From positions 1 through 50,632 of the forward strand of contig CACZJU010000015.1 of NCBI GenBank assembly GCA_902781515.1: a DNA stretch of 50,632 nucleotides. Reading direction: 5' to 3'. Position 1 is the first letter of the stretch; every line of letters starts with the position of its first letter. Source of the DNA: an uncultured Bacteroidales bacterium. Its GTDB lineage: Bacteria > Bacteroidota > Bacteroidia > Bacteroidales > Bacteroidaceae. The position numbers and the translations under genes were made by a program. Under the pieces are notes generated by a model. It was given only the letters and a program-made list of their open reading frames with translations, was not told where the DNA came from and searched no databases. This document shows, piece after piece, positions 21,285 through 29,096 of this stretch.

Positions 21285-24200
21285 TTAGTCGAACTTCAAT
21301 TTTGGGAGGTTGTTCACGATGTCTACCGTCTGGGTGCTGACATTGATGACGGAAAGCAGGAGGTCGAGGATGTAACGGGGCTTGCCGTGTTCGCGCGCCC
21401 AGTCGTTGGCATCGTTCTTGATGAGCGATTTCTTGTCTTGGCTGACGCAGTAGCGTTCTACTATCCATTCGATGGCGCTCTTACCGTTCACCACATAGTC
21501 GTATGCCTTTTGTGGGATGTTCGTGATGGTGATGTTTCCGTTGTAGATAATTGTGCTCTTATCCTCCTTGCTCTTGAAGCGCATCTTGGGCTGCACGCGG
21601 AAGTATTCGTAGTCATCTTTTTCTGCACGCTGGGCGCTGGCGATATGCACCACCACTTCGGGATGCGGCGCCACCTGTTCGTAGTTCAAGTGCAAGTCGG
21701 CCAACTGCTTGCCTGCCTTGTAGAAATCCATAAAGTCGTCGAGGCTATCCACGATGGGAATCCTTGGCAGCGACTTCTTCAGGTCGGCAGCAAAGCGTTC
21801 GCGATAGTCCTTCGAGTGCAGCAGACCATAGACGTAGTAGAATATCATTTCCTTCGTGATGTTCCTTGTGCCGTATCGCGTGCGTACCTCTTTTAATATC
21901 CAGTCTGTGATGCCGTCCCTGCGGATATAGTCATCGTTCGATTCTTCATCAAATAGTGACTTCTGCTTGTTCTTGTTTTCTTCGTACCAGTATAGAGGGA
22001 AATATTGACCATTCATATTTAACTGAATATCGCCAATATTATCGATAATAAGACAACTATAAGGTTTTGAGCTGCCGACACCCGTCATACCAATACAATA
22101 GTTGGTTTTTCCGTTGGGTATAATATCCCTCCAAATGCCAGGACGTTCCACCACACTTTTTCGATAATATAATTTCTGCTTTATAAAAGGTCTGTAAAAT
22201 GATTCTATTATTGAGTCCTTTTCATATGCTATTTTTATTCCACGTTCTCTATTTTGAAGAAGTGTTATTGTCCAACTTATTTTGGTGGGTTCCCTTGAGA
22301 AGTCCTTAATTCCTATTTGCTCATTATAAAAATCAATCATCTGCTTTATATTAGTATCAACGGATGGCTCAGAAAAGCCATATGACCAAGAATCTATTTT
22401 GGTAGCAACACCTATAGCATTGGTTGAGAAAAAGGAATGAGATTTAGTATTAAACTTCTTATCTGGGAAAATAGGTATCATTTCATCAAATAACCCATCA
22501 CGTTGGTTTATCCAATCATTCTTTTCGTTAGGAATCAGTTCTTGCCATTCTATATTGCTAATTGAACGGAATTTTTCAACAATGTCTAGTTTTTGCCTTT
22601 TTGTTAGATAGTCACCAATGTCATGGTAATAGATTGTTGCTTTGCCTTGCTTTGCAGGATTTTTTACAAGTAATGTGATAGTGATAGGAGTGCGCGTTCC
22701 CTCACCAAATACATTTCCACTCTCCTTGCGACGCTGTTCACCGCTCGTTCTAGCATTTCCACGTAAATTGAAAACATAGATAGATGTGAATTCGTCTTGT
22801 AAGCATTTACGCATTCCGTCTTGTGCATTTCCATCTATCCATGCGCCATTACTGATAAAGGCAACGATTCCCCCATCTTTAATTTGGGCGATTCGGTCAC
22901 TTGCCCATCGAAACGCTTTCACATAACTATCATATAATGATTTGTTGAGGTTAGCCGAAGAGTATTTCGCATAAGTTCCCTCAATTTTACCATCAAGCGT
23001 TGGATATTTGAGATTTGCTGCATTATCATTAGCTGAGCCTTGTCCCACAGAATACGGCGGGTTGCCGATGATAACACGGACAGGTGCATTCTTTTGTTTC
23101 TTCAGACGCTCGGAGTTTTCGGGGAAGAGCTGTGAGAAGATATCATTATCCCCATGCTCATTCAGCTGGAAGGTATCAGTCAGACAAATGCCATCATACA
23201 TCTCGTATTTCTCAGGATGCATAATATCATGATAGACGGCCTCGATATTTACATCGGCTATGTAGTACGCCAGCAGAACGATCTCATTGCAATGGATTTC
23301 GTTCTTGTACTTGCGCAGCATATCTTCTTTTTTTATCAGTCCACTTTGCAGCAAACGGGTGATGAATGTTCCGGTTCCTACAAACGGATCGAGGATGTGC
23401 ACATTCTCTTCAGTCAACGAGGTGTTGAACTCCTGCTGCAGAATGTCCTCGACGCTATGGATGATAAAGTCAACGCACTCAACTGGCGTATAGACAATAC
23501 CCAGTTTTTCTACCGTCAACGGGAAGGCTCCCTTAAAGAACTTCTCGTAGAGGTTCTTAATGATGGTCTGCTTAGCCTCCAGGTTGTCGATGTTGCTGAT
23601 GTTGTTCTTAACTGAGGTGTAGAACTTGTCGAGCACAGCCGTATCCATCTCCATACCTTCACTTTCAAGCACTTCGAGCATATCCTGCATGGCACGACTG
23701 ACAGCATTGTTCTTCACAAACTGGTATTCTGCAAACAGGGCATCGAACACGGGACGTGTTATCATGTGCTGGGCAAGCATTTCTATGGCTTGTCCCTCGT
23801 CTATGCTGTCGTTGATGTTTTTGTGCAGTCCGCTAATGAAGTCTTTAAAGTAGCTCTTCGCATTATCGTTTTCCTTAATCAGCAGGGTTATGCGGTCGAT
23901 AAACTTCTGAGCTATCTGTCCGACACTCTTAGCCCAATTCTCCCAGTATAGTTTGTCGCCTACCTTTTCTACCAGTCGTGCATAGATGCCATCCTGCAAA
24001 GTTCCGAAGCGGAGTTCCAGTTGGCGGGCCACTTCGTCGTTGGTCATAGTTGTTGCTTCACCATCGTCAGACAGAGTACCCAAGCTATAGGTGTTTCGCG
24101 GCGGTCGGGCGATGGTAATCTTTGCCGGACGCTTTTTGTTCAGGTTTATTTGGTTGACGTGGGCATTAAAGTTCTCGTCGTGAGAGCGCAAAGCATTCAG

Positions 24201-26228
24201 AATTGTCCAAACGACCTTGAAGCGTTCGTTGTCGTTCAGGGCATCCTCTGGCTTCACGTCATTGGGCACGATGACGGGGATAATGATGTAGCCGTATTTC
24301 TTCTCTTTGTCTGTACCACGTCCGAAGGTTCGCATCACGCGGCCTACCGATTGCACGACTTCCACCTCACTATTGCGTGGCGAAAGGAAAAGCACGGCAT
24401 CGAGGGCTGGTACATCAACACCCTCCGACAGACAACGTACATTACAGAGCACACGGCATTCCTGTGGGTCTTCGGCATCCTGTTTCAGCCACGCTATAAG
24501 TTCATTACGCGTGTTAGCATCCATAGAACCGTCGATATGCTTGGCTTTGACATTCACCACTTCCTTCTTCTCGTCCTCAAACATCGTCTGCTTATACTCG
24601 TCGCAGATGACGCCGAAATAGCGAGCCATTTGTGTGGAGCTGTAGTTCGGGTTGCTCTTCGTGGGGTTGATGGTCTGACAGAAGGCAACAGCCCTACGCA
24701 TCATAATGGGGTCTTGCTCTTTGGTGATGCCATTATCGCCTTTGATACGCTTGGAGAGTCCGTTTATACAACCGATAATCTTTGTGGCATCGTCGAAATG
24801 CAGTTCACGCAGTTTGTCCTTTTCTGGAGCGAAGTTATAGTTGGCCTTGATGCTTTCGCGTATCTCTTGCGGGATGTCCTCTTCGCTGACCGTCAGCACC
24901 AGCACCTTATAGTCTGCCAATAGTCCCTGACTGACGGCATCGTTGAACGTCAGGCGATGGAACTCTTCGCCATAAAGTTCGTTGGAATCCATCGAGCAGA
25001 GAATATCCACATTTTCGTCTTCCTTTGCCTTTACCTTCACATTGGCACTATACAGGCGAGGCGTGGCTGTCATGTACAGGCGTTTCTTGGCTCGGATGAA
25101 GTCGTTGTTGTGTATCTTCGTGAAGTTGCTTTCCAACTTGTCTTTCAGGACAACACCCGTGGTGCGGTGGGCTTCGTCGCAGATTATCAAATCCACCTCA
25201 CGACCATATCGGTCGATGGCCTCTTTCACTACGTCTATACTCTGATAAGTGGAGAAGATGACAATACGACAATTGTCCTTATTATATTGCTTGAGTTGGC
25301 GCAAAATGCTGTTGGTATTCGTAGTAGCCGGAACAGCAAGGTCTATCACGCTGGCATCCTCGTCGTCGGCATCAACCATTTTCCTGCTGGCTTTAGCATC
25401 CGAACAGACACAGACGGCCCTCATGTCTTCCTGTTTGTCTGCCATCCATGCATTTAGCGTCTGACCCAAAAGGGCAATACTTGGCACGAGGAACAATACT
25501 AAGGCATTCTTATCCGTCATCTGTTCCATGATTTTCAGACTGGTATAGGTCTTGCCAGTACCACATGCCATAATCAGTTTACCTCGGTCGTTGCCTTGTT
25601 CTACAAAATAGTCGTAGGCTCGCGACATTGCTGTCAGTTGATGGGGAAGCGGCTGCTTGCCCGGCAATTTGGCATCTTCGCCATACAGACCTTCACGCAG
25701 TTTACCCCAATCTACGGCAGAGATTTCAAGGTCATAAAGGGAAATTCGGTTGAATGGTTTGCTCAGCCCTTGAATAGCCGCTTCGGCATTTGCACCCCAA
25801 CGCTTGCGGGTGGTCTGTACCCATAGGAGATTGGAGAAATCGCGCGTCTGAAGGGTCTCAGGGTCAAGGAATGTACGACTGGCATTTGCCAAGAAACTAT
25901 CCACCGAGCCTTTGGATATTTGGGTATCCTCATCATAGCATTTGCATTGGATGGCCCAATAGTCGCCAGCTTCTGTACGAGCGACGAGGTCGATACCCAA
26001 ATCCTTACCACTGAAGTCCTTGCGAGCAGGAAACTCTTCCCACAGCCACACCTGTTGAAGGTTGCTATAGCGAGGGTCGGTCAAGAACCAGAGCTTCATC
26101 AGACGTTCAAAGTCTGTACCTTTCTCTTTCTCAGTAAGTGACTTCTGGCGTATTTCAGCCAATATCTCATGAATGCCATATACCGATGGCATAGGGGCAC
26201 GATGGCCCTTGGATAGATTCTTTTGCAT
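21285..26228 (-). CDS. Single-polypeptide type ISP restriction-modification enzyme
   Basis: 1647 residues from the ATG at 26228. The order is that of type ISP enzymes such as LlaBIII. An Mrr-like nuclease carries GIDLVART and YWAIQCKCY (~78-98, PD-(D/E)xK type). The SF2 translocase has Walker A ACGTGKT (~221), DEAH (~351) and SVGRVMRTFGRG. A gamma-type N6-adenine methyltransferase has ILDPFVGTGTF (~943, SAM motif I) and GNPPYSVGQG (~1055, motif IV). The C-terminal ~450 residues hold the target-recognition domain. One chain methylates its asymmetric site and cleaves after ATP-driven translocation. All active-site motifs look intact. It has an unusual structured 5' leader (26230-26450) and a strong terminator. 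A TTG at 26264 and an ATG at 26192 are alternative starts. Confidence 0.93.
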   Translation of the reverse strand: MQKNLSKGHRAPMPSVYGIHEILAEIRQKSLTEKEKGTDFERLMKLWFLTDPRYSNLQQVWLWEEFPARKDFSGKDLGIDLVARTEAGDYWAIQCKCYDEDTQISKGSVDSFLANASRTFLDPETLQTRDFSNLLWVQTTRKRWGANAEAAIQGLSKPFNRISLYDLEISAVDWGKLREGLYGEDAKLPGKQPLPHQLTAMSRAYDYFVEQGNDRGKLIMACGTGKTYTSLKIMEQMTDKNALVLFLVPSIALLGQTLNAWMADKQEDMRAVCVCSDAKASRKMVDADDEDASVIDLAVPATTNTNSILRQLKQYNKDNCRIVIFSTYQSIDVVKEAIDRYGREVDLIICDEAHRTTGVVLKDKLESNFTKIHNNDFIRAKKRLYMTATPRLYSANVKVKAKEDENVDILCSMDSNELYGEEFHRLTFNDAVSQGLLADYKVLVLTVSEEDIPQEIRESIKANYNFAPEKDKLRELHFDDATKIIGCINGLSKRIKGDNGITKEQDPIMMRRAVAFCQTINPTKSNPNYSSTQMARYFGVICDEYKQTMFEDEKKEVVNVKAKHIDGSMDANTRNELIAWLKQDAEDPQECRVLCNVRCLSEGVDVPALDAVLFLSPRNSEVEVVQSVGRVMRTFGRGTDKEKKYGYIIIPVIVPNDVKPEDALNDNERFKVVWTILNALRSHDENFNAHVNQINLNKKRPAKITIARPPRNTYSLGTLSDDGEATTMTNDEVARQLELRFGTLQDGIYARLVEKVGDKLYWENWAKSVGQIAQKFIDRITLLIKENDNAKSYFKDFISGLHKNINDSIDEGQAIEMLAQHMITRPVFDALFAEYQFVKNNAVSRAMQDMLEVLESEGMEMDTAVLDKFYTSVKNNISNIDNLEAKQTIIKNLYEKFFKGAFPLTVEKLGIVYTPVECVDFIIHSVEDILQQEFNTSLTEENVHILDPFVGTGTFITRLLQSGLIKKEDMLRKYKNEIHCNEIVLLAYYIADVNIEAVYHDIMHPEKYEMYDGICLTDTFQLNEHGDNDIFSQLFPENSERLKKQKNAPVRVIIGNPPYSVGQGSANDNAANLKYPTLDGKIEGTYAKYSSANLNKSLYDSYVKAFRWASDRIAQIKDGGIVAFISNGAWIDGNAQDGMRKCLQDEFTSIYVFNLRGNARTSGEQRRKESGNVFGEGTRTPITITLLVKNPAKQGKATIYYHDIGDYLTKRQKLDIVEKFRSISNIEWQELIPNEKNDWINQRDGLFDEMIPIFPDKKFNTKSHSFFSTNAIGVATKIDSWSYGFSEPSVDTNIKQMIDFYNEQIGIKDFSREPTKISWTITLLQNRERGIKIAYEKDSIIESFYRPFIKQKLYYRKSVVERPGIWRDIIPNGKTNYCIGMTGVGSSKPYSCLIIDNIGDIQLNMNGQYFPLYWYEENKNKQKSLFDEESNDDYIRRDGITDWILKEVRTRYGTRNITKEMIFYYVYGLLHSKDYRERFAADLKKSLPRIPIVDSLDDFMDFYKAGKQLADLHLNYEQVAPHPEVVVHIASAQRAEKDDYEYFRVQPKMRFKSKEDKSTIIYNGNITITNIPQKAYDYVVNGKSAIEWIVERYCVSQDKKSLIKNDANDWAREHGKPRYILDLLLSVINVSTQTVDIVNNLPKLKFD

Positions 26229-26450
26229 GTTGGTCGGACGCTTTAAAAATCTAAATCTTTGCAATAAGTAAGTTGACGTCGGGGCACAAAGAAAGCGTAC
26301 CTTGCTTCCAATATCACCTCTACATCCAGGATTAGCGTCCGACCAAAGATTTTAACCCTTATCACGAAATGACAGGAAGTGGTACGCCTATCGACGGCGT
26401 ACTCACATTCCTCGGTTCGTGATAATGTTGGTCGGACATTTTTGGATGTA
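26227..26450 (-). promoter_or_regulatory. Structured 5' leader of the type ISP gene: large imperfect palindrome plus a start-site copy
   Basis: Positions 26321-26450 form a ~130-nt imperfect palindrome with paired blocks TACATCCA/TGGATGTA, GTCCGACCAA/TTGGTCGGAC, TTATCACGAA/TTCGTGATAA and GTACGCC/GGCGTAC. The minus-strand element GTCCGACCAACAT occurs at 26437-26425 and again at 26239-26227, where its last bases are the start codon. The middle element TTGGTCGGACGCT (26346-26334) can pair with the first copy, or more fully (13 bp) with the one at the start codon. Two exclusive folds are thus possible, one hiding the translation start. No ligand or protein is known; it could also be a MITE-like insertion. 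Confidence 0.6.
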
Positions 26451-26460
26451 GAACCTTCAG

Positions 26461-26480
26461 AATTGAATACGTATATTCAA
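26461..26480. repeat. Small palindrome in the leader region
   Basis: ATTGAATA-CGTA-TATTCAAT, 8-bp arms. It lies between the large palindrome and the -7 element of the type ISP gene, so it could be an operator. Confidence 0.5.
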
Positions 26481-26525
26481 TATACCCACGATGTCTAGCA
26501 CAAGCCTTTCGGCTGAATGCTGCGA

Positions 26526-26533
26526 CAAAGATA
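26526..26533 (-). promoter_or_regulatory. Probable -7 element for the type ISP gene
   Basis: TATCTTTG on the minus strand (26533-26526). The nearest TTG upstream is at 26559-26557, 23 nt away, slightly long. If used, it would give a leader of about 290 nt containing the whole palindrome. Confidence 0.45.
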
Positions 26534-26719
26534 CAAAGTTTTTTTTGATAATGTAGCAATCCGCCCCTAAAATACCACACCCGCTCAAACACAAACACAG
26601 GCCCCAACTCAGCGGGTCTGTCTTTTTGTATGCTCTTAAATCATACGAAGCGTGAGGGTGTTTAACCATAATGTTAGGTATTAAAAATCACAAATCAGTG
26701 AACTTTATAGGTGCATTTC

Positions 26720-26750
26720 TTTGCAATAATCATATTTGTTTGTAAATTTG
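26720..26750 (+). promoter_or_regulatory. Promoter of the HigA-like gene
   Basis: TTTG (26720-26723), 19 nt and TAAATTTG (26743-26750) match the consensus exactly, 14 nt before the ATG at 26764. The 230 bp from 26534 to 26763 otherwise hold no gene. Confidence 0.75.
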
Positions 26751-26763
26751 CAGGGCATAGGAT

Positions 26764-27141
26764 ATGGTTATCAAAAGCGAAAAGGAATACAAGGACTACG
26801 AGGCTCGTGCAGAGGCATTGATGCAGCGCGGCACCCAGTTAGGCGACATGGATTTGCTTTCAGACGAAGATAAAAGCGAGTTCATGATGCTGAGTGAGGC
26901 TTTGGAAGAGTACGGCAGCGCCTATCATCCGCTCCCTGGACAGATGAGCACTTTGCTCACCGATGCCATTCTGACGCAGGTAAAACAGAAAGGGCTGAAG
27001 CAGAAGGATGCGGCCCGTATGATAGGTATCAGTTCGACAATGTTCAGCGACCTGATTCACGGGCGGCGTTCACTAAGCTTCGAAGTGGCACGCAGCATTC
27101 ACAAGATGCTTGGCATACCCGCAGATGTCGTATTAGCGTAA
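26764..27141 (+). CDS. HigA-like XRE-family antitoxin or regulator (no toxin partner seen)
   Basis: 125 residues. The N-terminal ~70 are acidic and helical, with YKDYEARAEALMQRG as in HigA-type proteins that bind a HigB/RelE toxin. A helix-turn-helix of the Cro/C1 type follows (LKQKDAARMIGISSTMFSDLIHGRRSLSFEVARSIHKMLG, residues ~79-118). HigA usually lies just downstream of its toxin gene, but the 230 bp before this gene have no open frame of useful size, and the next gene is of a different family. It may be an orphan or a regulator of nearby genes, for instance the divergent type ISP enzyme. Confidence 0.85.
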   Translation: MVIKSEKEYKDYEARAEALMQRGTQLGDMDLLSDEDKSEFMMLSEALEEYGSAYHPLPGQMSTLLTDAILTQVKQKGLKQKDAARMIGISSTMFSDLIHGRRSLSFEVARSIHKMLGIPADVVLA

Positions 27142-27292
27142 GACACCTCCCACTCAAACCATCCCCAACAAAGCAAAGGACAGGCCAGTCCAAGTACTGC
27201 TGCCAGCTATTGCTCGGGTCGCAGTTGCAACGGATGGCTGCATTGGGTAAATGATTCTGGACAGACGCTGGACGAACTGTACAGGGGAGAAT

Positions 27293-28407: not shown

Positions 28408-28797
28408 ATGGCCAAAGAGGACATTATAAAGGCGTGGCAAGAGCAGGTGCAAGAAGACATCAGTTCAGCAGAATGTCTCTACCAAGGCGGTCATTGGCTC
28501 TATGTAGCCTTTCTCTGTCATCAGGCCATTGAAAAGGCCCTTAAAGCCTATTATGTGGCAAATCACGATGACGACCCACCATACACTCACAGTCATTTGC
28601 GATTGATAGATGTATGCGGACTAAAAGACGAGATTTCGCCTGAACACATGAGGTTCTTATCGCTCATGGGACCTATGTACATCGAAGCCCGATATCCTGA
28701 ACAGAAGGCAAAGACGGCTCGAACACTTAACAAGGACGCTTGCAAGCACATCATAGAAACAACTAAACAACTGACGCAATGGATAGGAGAACTCTAA
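28408..28797 (+). CDS. HEPN-domain protein of a HEPN-MNT pair
   Basis: 129 residues, all helical, of the HEPN family (ISSAECLYQGGHWLYVAFLCHQAIEKALKAYYVANH, and IEARYPEQK near the end). I see no Rx4-6H RNase signature, so this member may be a non-catalytic partner or use a diverged site. It ends 19 nt inside the following nucleotidyltransferase gene, so the two are coupled. The order here is HEPN first, the reverse of the other two pairs in the window. The pair is probably a toxin-antitoxin or nucleotide-modifying module. Confidence 0.88.
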   Translation: MAKEDIIKAWQEQVQEDISSAECLYQGGHWLYVAFLCHQAIEKALKAYYVANHDDDPPYTHSHLRLIDVCGLKDEISPEHMRFLSLMGPMYIEARYPEQKAKTARTLNKDACKHIIETTKQLTQWIGEL

Positions 28798-29096
28798 CAC
28801 GGGATGAAGCCATAGAAACCGTTCGTCGATATAAACGAGTGATACGTCACCGTTACAAGACTGAGCCAAAGGTGTATATTTATGGTTCCTACGCAAAAGG
28901 GTATGCTAATCCTGATAGCGACATTGATGTTGCAGTTATCGTACCGGAACCGGAAATAAACAATCACTGGGAACAGTCTGCTGATCTGTGGGGCGACATC
29001 CGCAAGGTTAACACACTAATTGAGCCGGTGCTCATGGAGGAAAACGAAGACTCTATGCTATACCGCGAAGTAATGCGTACCGGTATGGCTGTTTGA
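28779..29096 (+). CDS. Minimal nucleotidyltransferase (MNT) of a HEPN-MNT pair
   Basis: 105 residues with GSx10DxD: G36-S37 in YIYGSYAKG and D48/D50 in SDIDVAV. The third acidic residue is probably the Glu in LIEPVLMEEN. It would transfer a nucleotide to its HEPN partner or to another target. The start overlaps the HEPN gene by 19 nt. A strong hairpin follows. Confidence 0.9.
   Translation: MDRRTLTRDEAIETVRRYKRVIRHRYKTEPKVYIYGSYAKGYANPDSDIDVAVIVPEPEINNHWEQSADLWGDIRKVNTLIEPVLMEENEDSMLYREVMRTGMAV

What the first reader, a model, noticed from the sequence alone, without database searches (positions are those of the whole stretch)
26227..26533. Possible RNA switch in the long leader of the type ISP restriction-modification gene
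A -7 element at 26533-26526 would give a ~290-nt leader. It carries the element GTCCGACCAACAT twice in the sense direction (26437-26425, and 26239-26227 ending in the start codon) and its complement once (TTGGTCGGACGCT, 26346-26334). The complement can pair with the first copy as part of a ~130-nt palindrome, or with the start-site copy over 13 perfect base pairs. The two folds exclude each other, and the second would cover the start codon. Timing of restriction enzyme expression matters for R-M establishment, so a translational switch is plausible. A MITE-like insertion that brought the repeat is the main alternative.
Basis: partly seen in the sequence, partly recalled or inferred. Interest (0 to 1): 0.75.

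Follow-up and report, generated by a model that had tools for sequence, protein, structure and literature searches.

The report
Shared RNA switch before bacterial defence genes
The RNA ahead of this restriction gene belongs to a folded-RNA family, absent from the RNA library searched, that sits in front of many unrelated anti-virus genes in Prevotella-type bacteria and looks able to switch between two shapes, one of which would block the start of the gene.

Summary
The repeats, their inverted copy, the ~134-nt palindrome and the -7 element are present as described. The leader core (26275-26495, minus strand) belongs to a conserved structured RNA family without an Rfam match. Covariance models found it in 17 of 139 genomes of the window's genus and 17 of 45 of a related genus, rarely further away. 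It lies on the sense strand just upstream of unrelated genes: type ISP, DpnII, Eco57I-type and type III-like R-M, BREX, Pbe/Dnd, DrmD- and Hma-like helicases, and a few lipid A or surface enzymes. 57 of 68 modelled pairs show changes on both sides. Where a start-site copy exists, leader copy, complement and start-site copy change together (12 distinct sequences, 13 chosen loci, 0 of 20,000 permutations as good). A second strand (b*) can also pair downstream, beside a U-tract, with weaker support.

Not shown: transcription, switching, trigger. 19 of 43 loci tested lack the start-site copy, computed folds mostly favour the closed state, and the near-absence of G-U pairs in the central stem is unexplained.

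The parts
26526..26533 (-). -7 promoter element TATCTTTG
   Evidence: TAnnTTTG lies within 95 nt upstream of the core in 56 of 59 loci; in shuffled upstream sequence 162 of 2950
26498..26520 (-). P1, a 5' hairpin of variable sequence
   Evidence: folded; in the eight aligned leaders the arms differ in sequence but remain complementary (by eye, not counted)
26275..26495 (-). core of the RNA family (models R1, R2)
26443..26452 (-). 5' strand of the outer helix 5; partner 26319-26328
   Evidence: double changes in all 11 pairs of helix 5 on 41 sequences
26428..26437 (-). a, first sense copy GTCCGACCAA
   Evidence: helix 6 with a*
26396..26411 (-). b, 5' strand of the apical hairpin
   Evidence: helices 8 and 9
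26375..26388 (-). b*, pairs with b or, alternatively, b'
26334..26346 (-). a*, complement TTGGTCGGACGCT, pairs with a or with a'
26295..26309 (-). b', alternative partner of b*
   Evidence: 95% of cells paired; double changes in 4 of 12 pairs
26288..26294 (-). U-tract after b'
   Evidence: at least 6 T in the 10 nt after b' in 52 of 52 loci where b' was found (3 of 55 had none); control windows 86 of 1870; b' was anchored by motif
26230..26242 (-). a', start-site copy, 13 nt complementary to a*
26214..26253 (-). start hairpin: stem TAGATT (26253-26248) / AATCTA (26219-26214) around a' and the ATG
   Evidence: own stem mean 6.5 bp against 4.5 in shuffles, 21 loci
21285..26228 (-). type ISP restriction-modification gene
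   Evidence: Pfam Type_ISP_C, ISP_coupler, Mrr_cat_2, ResIII

Best explanation
The leader is a cis-acting structured RNA: a portable module of promoter, about 250 nt of RNA, a start hairpin and the first codons, which controls the gene behind it. Shown by comparison: a conserved structure, and a strand of its long hairpin (a*) that in about half of the loci has a second conserved partner (a') right before the start codon; a second strand (b*) has a likely second partner (b') followed by a U-tract. Inferred: in the closed state (a:a*, b:b*) the start site is free and the gene is on. When the 5' strand (a, b) is removed or captured, b* pairs with b' beside the U-tract (terminator-like) and a* pairs with a' against the start codon, and the gene goes off. 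The trigger is unknown; I think cleavage of the long stem, or a trans-acting binder of its 5' strand, most likely. Loci without a' would use only the b*:b' arm.
For: Covariation: 57 of 68 pairs with double changes, score 0.518 against 0.201 shuffled and at most 0.106 slid. Three-way covariation of a, a*, a': mean own match 10.5 nt, swapped 6.0, 0 of 20,000 permutations; in L033 one base is changed in all three copies. 24 of 43 loci have 10-13 nt of a* exactly complementary to the stretch before the ATG. Where the hairpin is lost (L083, L084) the start-site copy has mutated. Three of four R2 hits outside the training set bring new triplets (L162-L164). In 17 of 18 representatives a*:a' reaches P of at least 0.90 once the 5' strand is left off. 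Promoter element in 56 of 59 loci, sense gene in 55 of 55.
Against: 19 of 43 loci lack a'. The intact RNA favours the closed state by up to 11.6 kcal/mol in 15 of 18 representatives, while in L056, L060 and L062 the blocked state already dominates, so the direction is uncertain. b*:b' covariation is weak (4 of 12 pairs, 62 of 500 shuffles reach that; further pair types no better than shuffled), forcing it costs 4-34 kcal/mol and a simple terminator scan finds nothing. The inner pairs of the a:a* helix have no G-U, unusual for selection on RNA alone. L022 keeps a start-site copy although no RNA is found in the 164 nt upstream that are held. No expression data.
Confidence: 0.6

Rival explanations
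1. DNA-level switch: the inverted copies are recombination sites and the segment between them inverts, as in invertible promoters of Bacteroidales.
For: The central stem is nearly strictly Watson-Crick. Type ISP relatives in Phocaeicola, Bacteroides and Mediterranea have a 14-15-bp inverted repeat, one copy at the ATG, with a -7-like TACCTTTG inside pointing away from the gene.
Against: In the window the promoter lies outside the repeats; helices 1-4 covary with many G-U pairs; by inspection no row shows the asymmetric apical part reversed; the repeat sequence differs among loci, unlike one recombinase's site.
Confidence: 0.1
2. The leader ends at the U-tract as a separate small RNA whose a* represses translation of its own or other mRNAs in trans by pairing with a' in the start loop.
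For: U-tract in all 52 loci with b'; a' lies in a hairpin loop.
Against: a* is buried in the long stem of the intact RNA; no RNA data.
Confidence: 0.15
3. MITE-like or other selfish palindrome that happens to land in front of genes.
For: It occurs before unrelated genes; type ISP, EptA-like and acyltransferase proteins share an N-terminus such as MQxNL, so the module moves.
Against: Single copy in the window's genome; 55 of 55 loci in sense orientation before an ORF; promoter and structure conserved. Target duplications were not looked for.
Confidence: 0.05
4. The stem only serves mRNA stability or processing (for instance as an RNase III substrate) and the start-site copy has no role.
For: A long stem is a typical RNase III substrate (recalled); 19 of 43 loci lack a'.
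Against: 12 distinct a/a*/a' triplets with a' just before the ATG.
Confidence: 0.1

Closest known systems
hok/Sok-type toxin mRNAs (coupled covariation: Gultyaev et al. 1997, seen only as a reference in PMC6733600; metastable hairpin described in passages of that paper)
   Same: Mutually exclusive pairings visible as coupled covariation; translation start as the output
   Different: No toxin and no antisense RNA found; one leader serves many unrelated genes; different structure
Transcription attenuators and riboswitches (recalled)
   Same: Structured 5' leader with alternative pairings and a U-tract
   Different: No ligand domain identified; alternative hairpin with a long loop; no Rfam match
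Invertible promoters (invertons) of Bacteroidales
   Same: Inverted repeats upstream of R-M and surface genes; related type ISP genes appear to use one
   Different: Promoter outside the repeats; no reversed state seen; RNA-like covariation

Membership tests
Any Rfam 15 family | covariance-model match over the RNA | tested here: not met
   No match for window 25800-27200 at E up to 5. 18 member loci at E up to 0.1: 4 matches, all outside the RNA, 3 of them below the gathering score and one a tRNA
RNA conformational switch (attenuator or riboswitch type) | mutually exclusive conserved pairings | tested here: met
   a:a* against a*:a' in loci that have a'; b:b* against b*:b' with weaker support
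RNA conformational switch (attenuator or riboswitch type) | expression changes on a signal | not testable with these tools
   needs reporter and probing experiments
hok-type mRNA | toxin ORF with antisense RNA | tested here: not met
   downstream genes are R-M, BREX, helicase and surface enzymes; antisense RNA not tested
Inverton | promoter between the inverted repeats | tested here: not met
   TATCTTTG 26533-26526 lies outside 26230-26437; a + strand AATCTTTG inside is not kept in relatives
Inverton | both orientations in a population | not testable with these tools
   no reads available
MITE | many copies per genome, either orientation | tested here: not met
   one copy in the window's genome; sense orientation 55 of 55
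MITE | target-site duplications | not tested
   -

The most novel reading that the evidence does not exclude
A self-contained, horizontally portable RNA switch that puts many unrelated anti-phage systems, and surface genes that could alter phage receptors, under one common RNA-level control, possibly answering an infection-linked event such as cleavage or capture of the long stem's 5' strand: an RNA-based defence regulon.
Probability: 0.35. Interest if true: 0.95.

Novelty: new variant of a known kind. Interest (0 to 1): 0.85.

Why it matters
How anti-phage systems are turned on and off is poorly known (the start of the abstract of PMC12255303, seen, says so). One RNA family shared by type ISP, type II and type III-like R-M, BREX, Pbe/Dnd, DrmD- and Hma-like genes and by lipid A or surface enzymes would be a common control layer in Prevotella-type bacteria. 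The three-way covariation makes the switch testable by compensatory mutation, and the leader could help to find new defence genes.

Tried and rejected
An antisense promoter on the + strand (AATCTTTG at 26254-26261) was considered; relatives do not keep it. A leader peptide starting at the ATG next to a is lost in L037 and in the surface-gene loci. Recognition of a by the restriction enzyme itself was considered and dropped because the same architecture precedes non-R-M genes; specificity domains were not compared. Leader against plasmid and phage records: no blastn match. Two narrow pattern scans of viral contigs gave 20 stretches; model R2 gives two matches there, both in L139, at E 0.35 and 0.81, taken as chance. 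Complementarity of other leader parts to the start in DpnII and Dnd loci (by eye) is near the shuffled level and not claimed.

Papers: nine answered searches were seen as listings with abstract starts. Passages were read of PMC8040213 (one section), PMC5608340 and PMC6733600. None of what I saw describes this RNA; supplements could not be opened.

Full report
OBSERVATION. The leader folds far better than shuffles (z -6.36) and is single-copy in the 2.46-Mb assembly. The 13-bp start-site pairing (26242-26230) ends one base short of the ATG.

GENE AND RELATIVES. ORF 21285-26228 is a type ISP enzyme. A search of genome contigs gave 38 distinct loci encoding relatives, of which 28 contain the gene start. 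Seven of these have a leader that blastn aligns over most of its length (L017, L018, L020, L033, L035, L037, L044). L066, found later, looks the same as L037. Model R2 finds no such RNA in 17 other type ISP loci searched (L004, L005, L013-L016, L019, L021-L024, L026, L027, L038, L040, L042, L043); L022 keeps a start-site copy although nothing is found in its 164 upstream bases.

CONSERVATION. The eight leaders align end to end. In L033 one base of the repeat differs and all three copies carry the change. A covariance model of the core (R1) matched 13 of 139 genomes of the genus and 29 of 399 of a family sample, ten loci with E between 1e-33 and 1e-43. A model from 41 of these sequences (R2) matched 17 of 139 in the genus, 13 of them in its training set and 4 new; 17 of 45 in a related genus, again partly training genomes; 4 of 393 in the order sample, the window included; and only the window among 296 in the phylum sample. 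Larger samples score fewer candidates per genome, so these are lower bounds; E-values are rough.

WHAT FOLLOWS THE RNA. 59 loci were assembled (47, 8, 4; one probable duplicate). In 55 of 55 with more than 450 nt downstream a sense ORF of at least 100 aa starts within 130 nt; the same test away from the 5' end on the other strand gives 3 of 54, and random points of the same loci give 270 of 1014. Tested representatives (Pfam, PADLOC): type ISP; D12 methylase of a DpnII operon; an MmeI_Mtase-domain protein heading an operon with an Eco57I methylase and a T5orf172/ResIII protein; BrxP of BREX with BrxC and PglZ; an HmaA-like helicase (alone at a contig end); three N6_N4 methylases (L099, L118, L120; type III-like by my reading); a PAPS-reductase gene followed by a PbeC/DndD gene; DUF4007; a DrmD-like helicase followed by a type III-like methylase; an HKD+Snf2 helicase; a C5 methylase behind a truncated RNA (L112); an IIGP-like GTPase (L115, weak RNA match); an EptA-like enzyme; a lipid A acyltransferase; an acyltransferase 3. 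L106, L114 and L129 encode proteins without a Pfam match, and the ORF at L113 is unclear. Other members of these groups were assigned by N-terminal similarity only; L119 ends before its gene and was labelled by leader similarity. Type ISP, EptA-like and lipid A acyltransferase proteins share starts such as MQxNL, whose NL codons are the 3' strand of the start hairpin; this suggests that promoter, RNA and first codons travel together.

STRUCTURE. On 41 sequences 57 of 68 pairs have changes on both sides, and shuffled and slid controls fall far below. That alignment was fitted to the model and leans towards it; RNAalifold's own structure on it has double changes in 43 of 51 pairs. TAnnTTTG lies upstream in 56 of 59 loci, against 162 of 2950 shuffles.

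ALTERNATIVE PAIRINGS. Of 43 loci, 24 have 10-13 nt of a* exactly complementary to the stretch just before the ATG; 19 do not (8 DpnII, 3 Dnd/DUF4007, 4 BREX, DrmD, HKD, L081, and L083 which has lost the hairpin). I then chose 13 loci that have a start copy, with 12 distinct sequences (L065 and L077 share one that differs from the window's only at its edge): own match mean 10.5 nt, swapped 6.0, 0 of 20,000 permutations. The choice means that this tests specificity, not presence. In L077 and L118 two swapped start regions each do as well or better; in L162 the longest match is to the neighbouring hairpin strand, the a copy itself being 7 nt. Three of the four R2 hits outside the training set in the genus (L162-L164) bring new triplets; L161, a BREX locus, has none. 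A stem encloses a' and the ATG: own mean 6.5 bp against 4.5 shuffled; 17 of 21 loci reach 6 bp, against 13% of shuffles; the 5-bp cases are near chance. In L163 and L164 the start so placed opens a short ORF ahead of the methylase gene (by eye). b* can also pair with b': 95% of cells paired but double changes in only 4 of 12 pairs, so support is modest. b' is followed by a U-rich tract in 52 of 52 loci where it was found by motif (3 of 55 had none), against 86 of 1870 control windows.

ENERGIES. Window, with an assumed start at 26520: closed -125.2, start-blocked -118.3 kcal/mol; P(a*:a') about 1e-4 intact and about 0.94 without the 5' strand. In 18 chosen representatives the gap is 0-11.6 kcal/mol; 17 of 18 reach P of at least 0.90 without the 5' strand (L113 does not), and in L056, L060 and L062 the blocked state already dominates. 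For b*:b', 19 of 24 representatives could be evaluated: forcing it costs 4.1-33.9 kcal/mol, and without the 5' side P is at least 0.94 in 14 and 0 in 5. Direction and trigger of switching therefore remain inferred.

UNEXPLAINED. The nine inner pairs of the a:a* helix have 0 G-U among 346 standard pairs and helix 7 has 8 of 354, against 16-31% in helices 1-4, lower 5 and 8; upper 5 and helix 9 have 5-6%. I left out the ragged edge pairs of helix 6 (82/238, 93/228) and one of helix 7 (120/211); the edge pairs of helix 6 do contain G-U. Template-switch correction of the palindrome, a need for the structure in both strands, or a DNA-level role could explain it.

NOVELTY. No Rfam match over the RNA. 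Nine answered text searches listed no paper that describes it (see Tried and rejected); supplements were not open, so a large candidate-RNA survey (PMC8040213) could contain it unnamed. As a mechanism it is an RNA conformational switch, a known kind; sharing by many unrelated defence systems is what I have not seen described.

Noticed in passing
L023, L027, L038, L040 (and L024, L043), upstream of the type ISP ATG: A 14-15-bp inverted repeat, one copy at the ATG and one about 177 nt upstream (four loci; the same element is visible in the other two), with a -7-like TACCTTTG just inside the distal copy pointing away from the gene: looks like an invertible promoter in the off orientation.
   Followed up: partly
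L067, about 1 kb upstream of the RNA: A second copy of the promoter, P1 and first 48 nt of the RNA, fused in front of a KilA-N domain gene; not found elsewhere in 8 other genomes beyond leader matches and weak hits.
   Followed up: partly
L083, L084, L090: Truncated members: L083 and L084 have lost the long hairpin and carry a mutated start-site copy; L090 keeps only part of it, before a C5 methylase.
   Followed up: partly
window 28408-29096: HEPN-domain gene followed by a nucleotidyltransferase gene, as in MNT/HEPN toxin-antitoxin pairs (Pfam; the pairing as a system is recalled).
   Followed up: no
window 26764-27141: Divergent small HTH_3 gene directly upstream of the leader; a possible regulator, not tested.
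   Followed up: no
L049, about 930-1300: CRISPR-like array: a 32-nt repeat at about 65-nt spacing.
   Followed up: no
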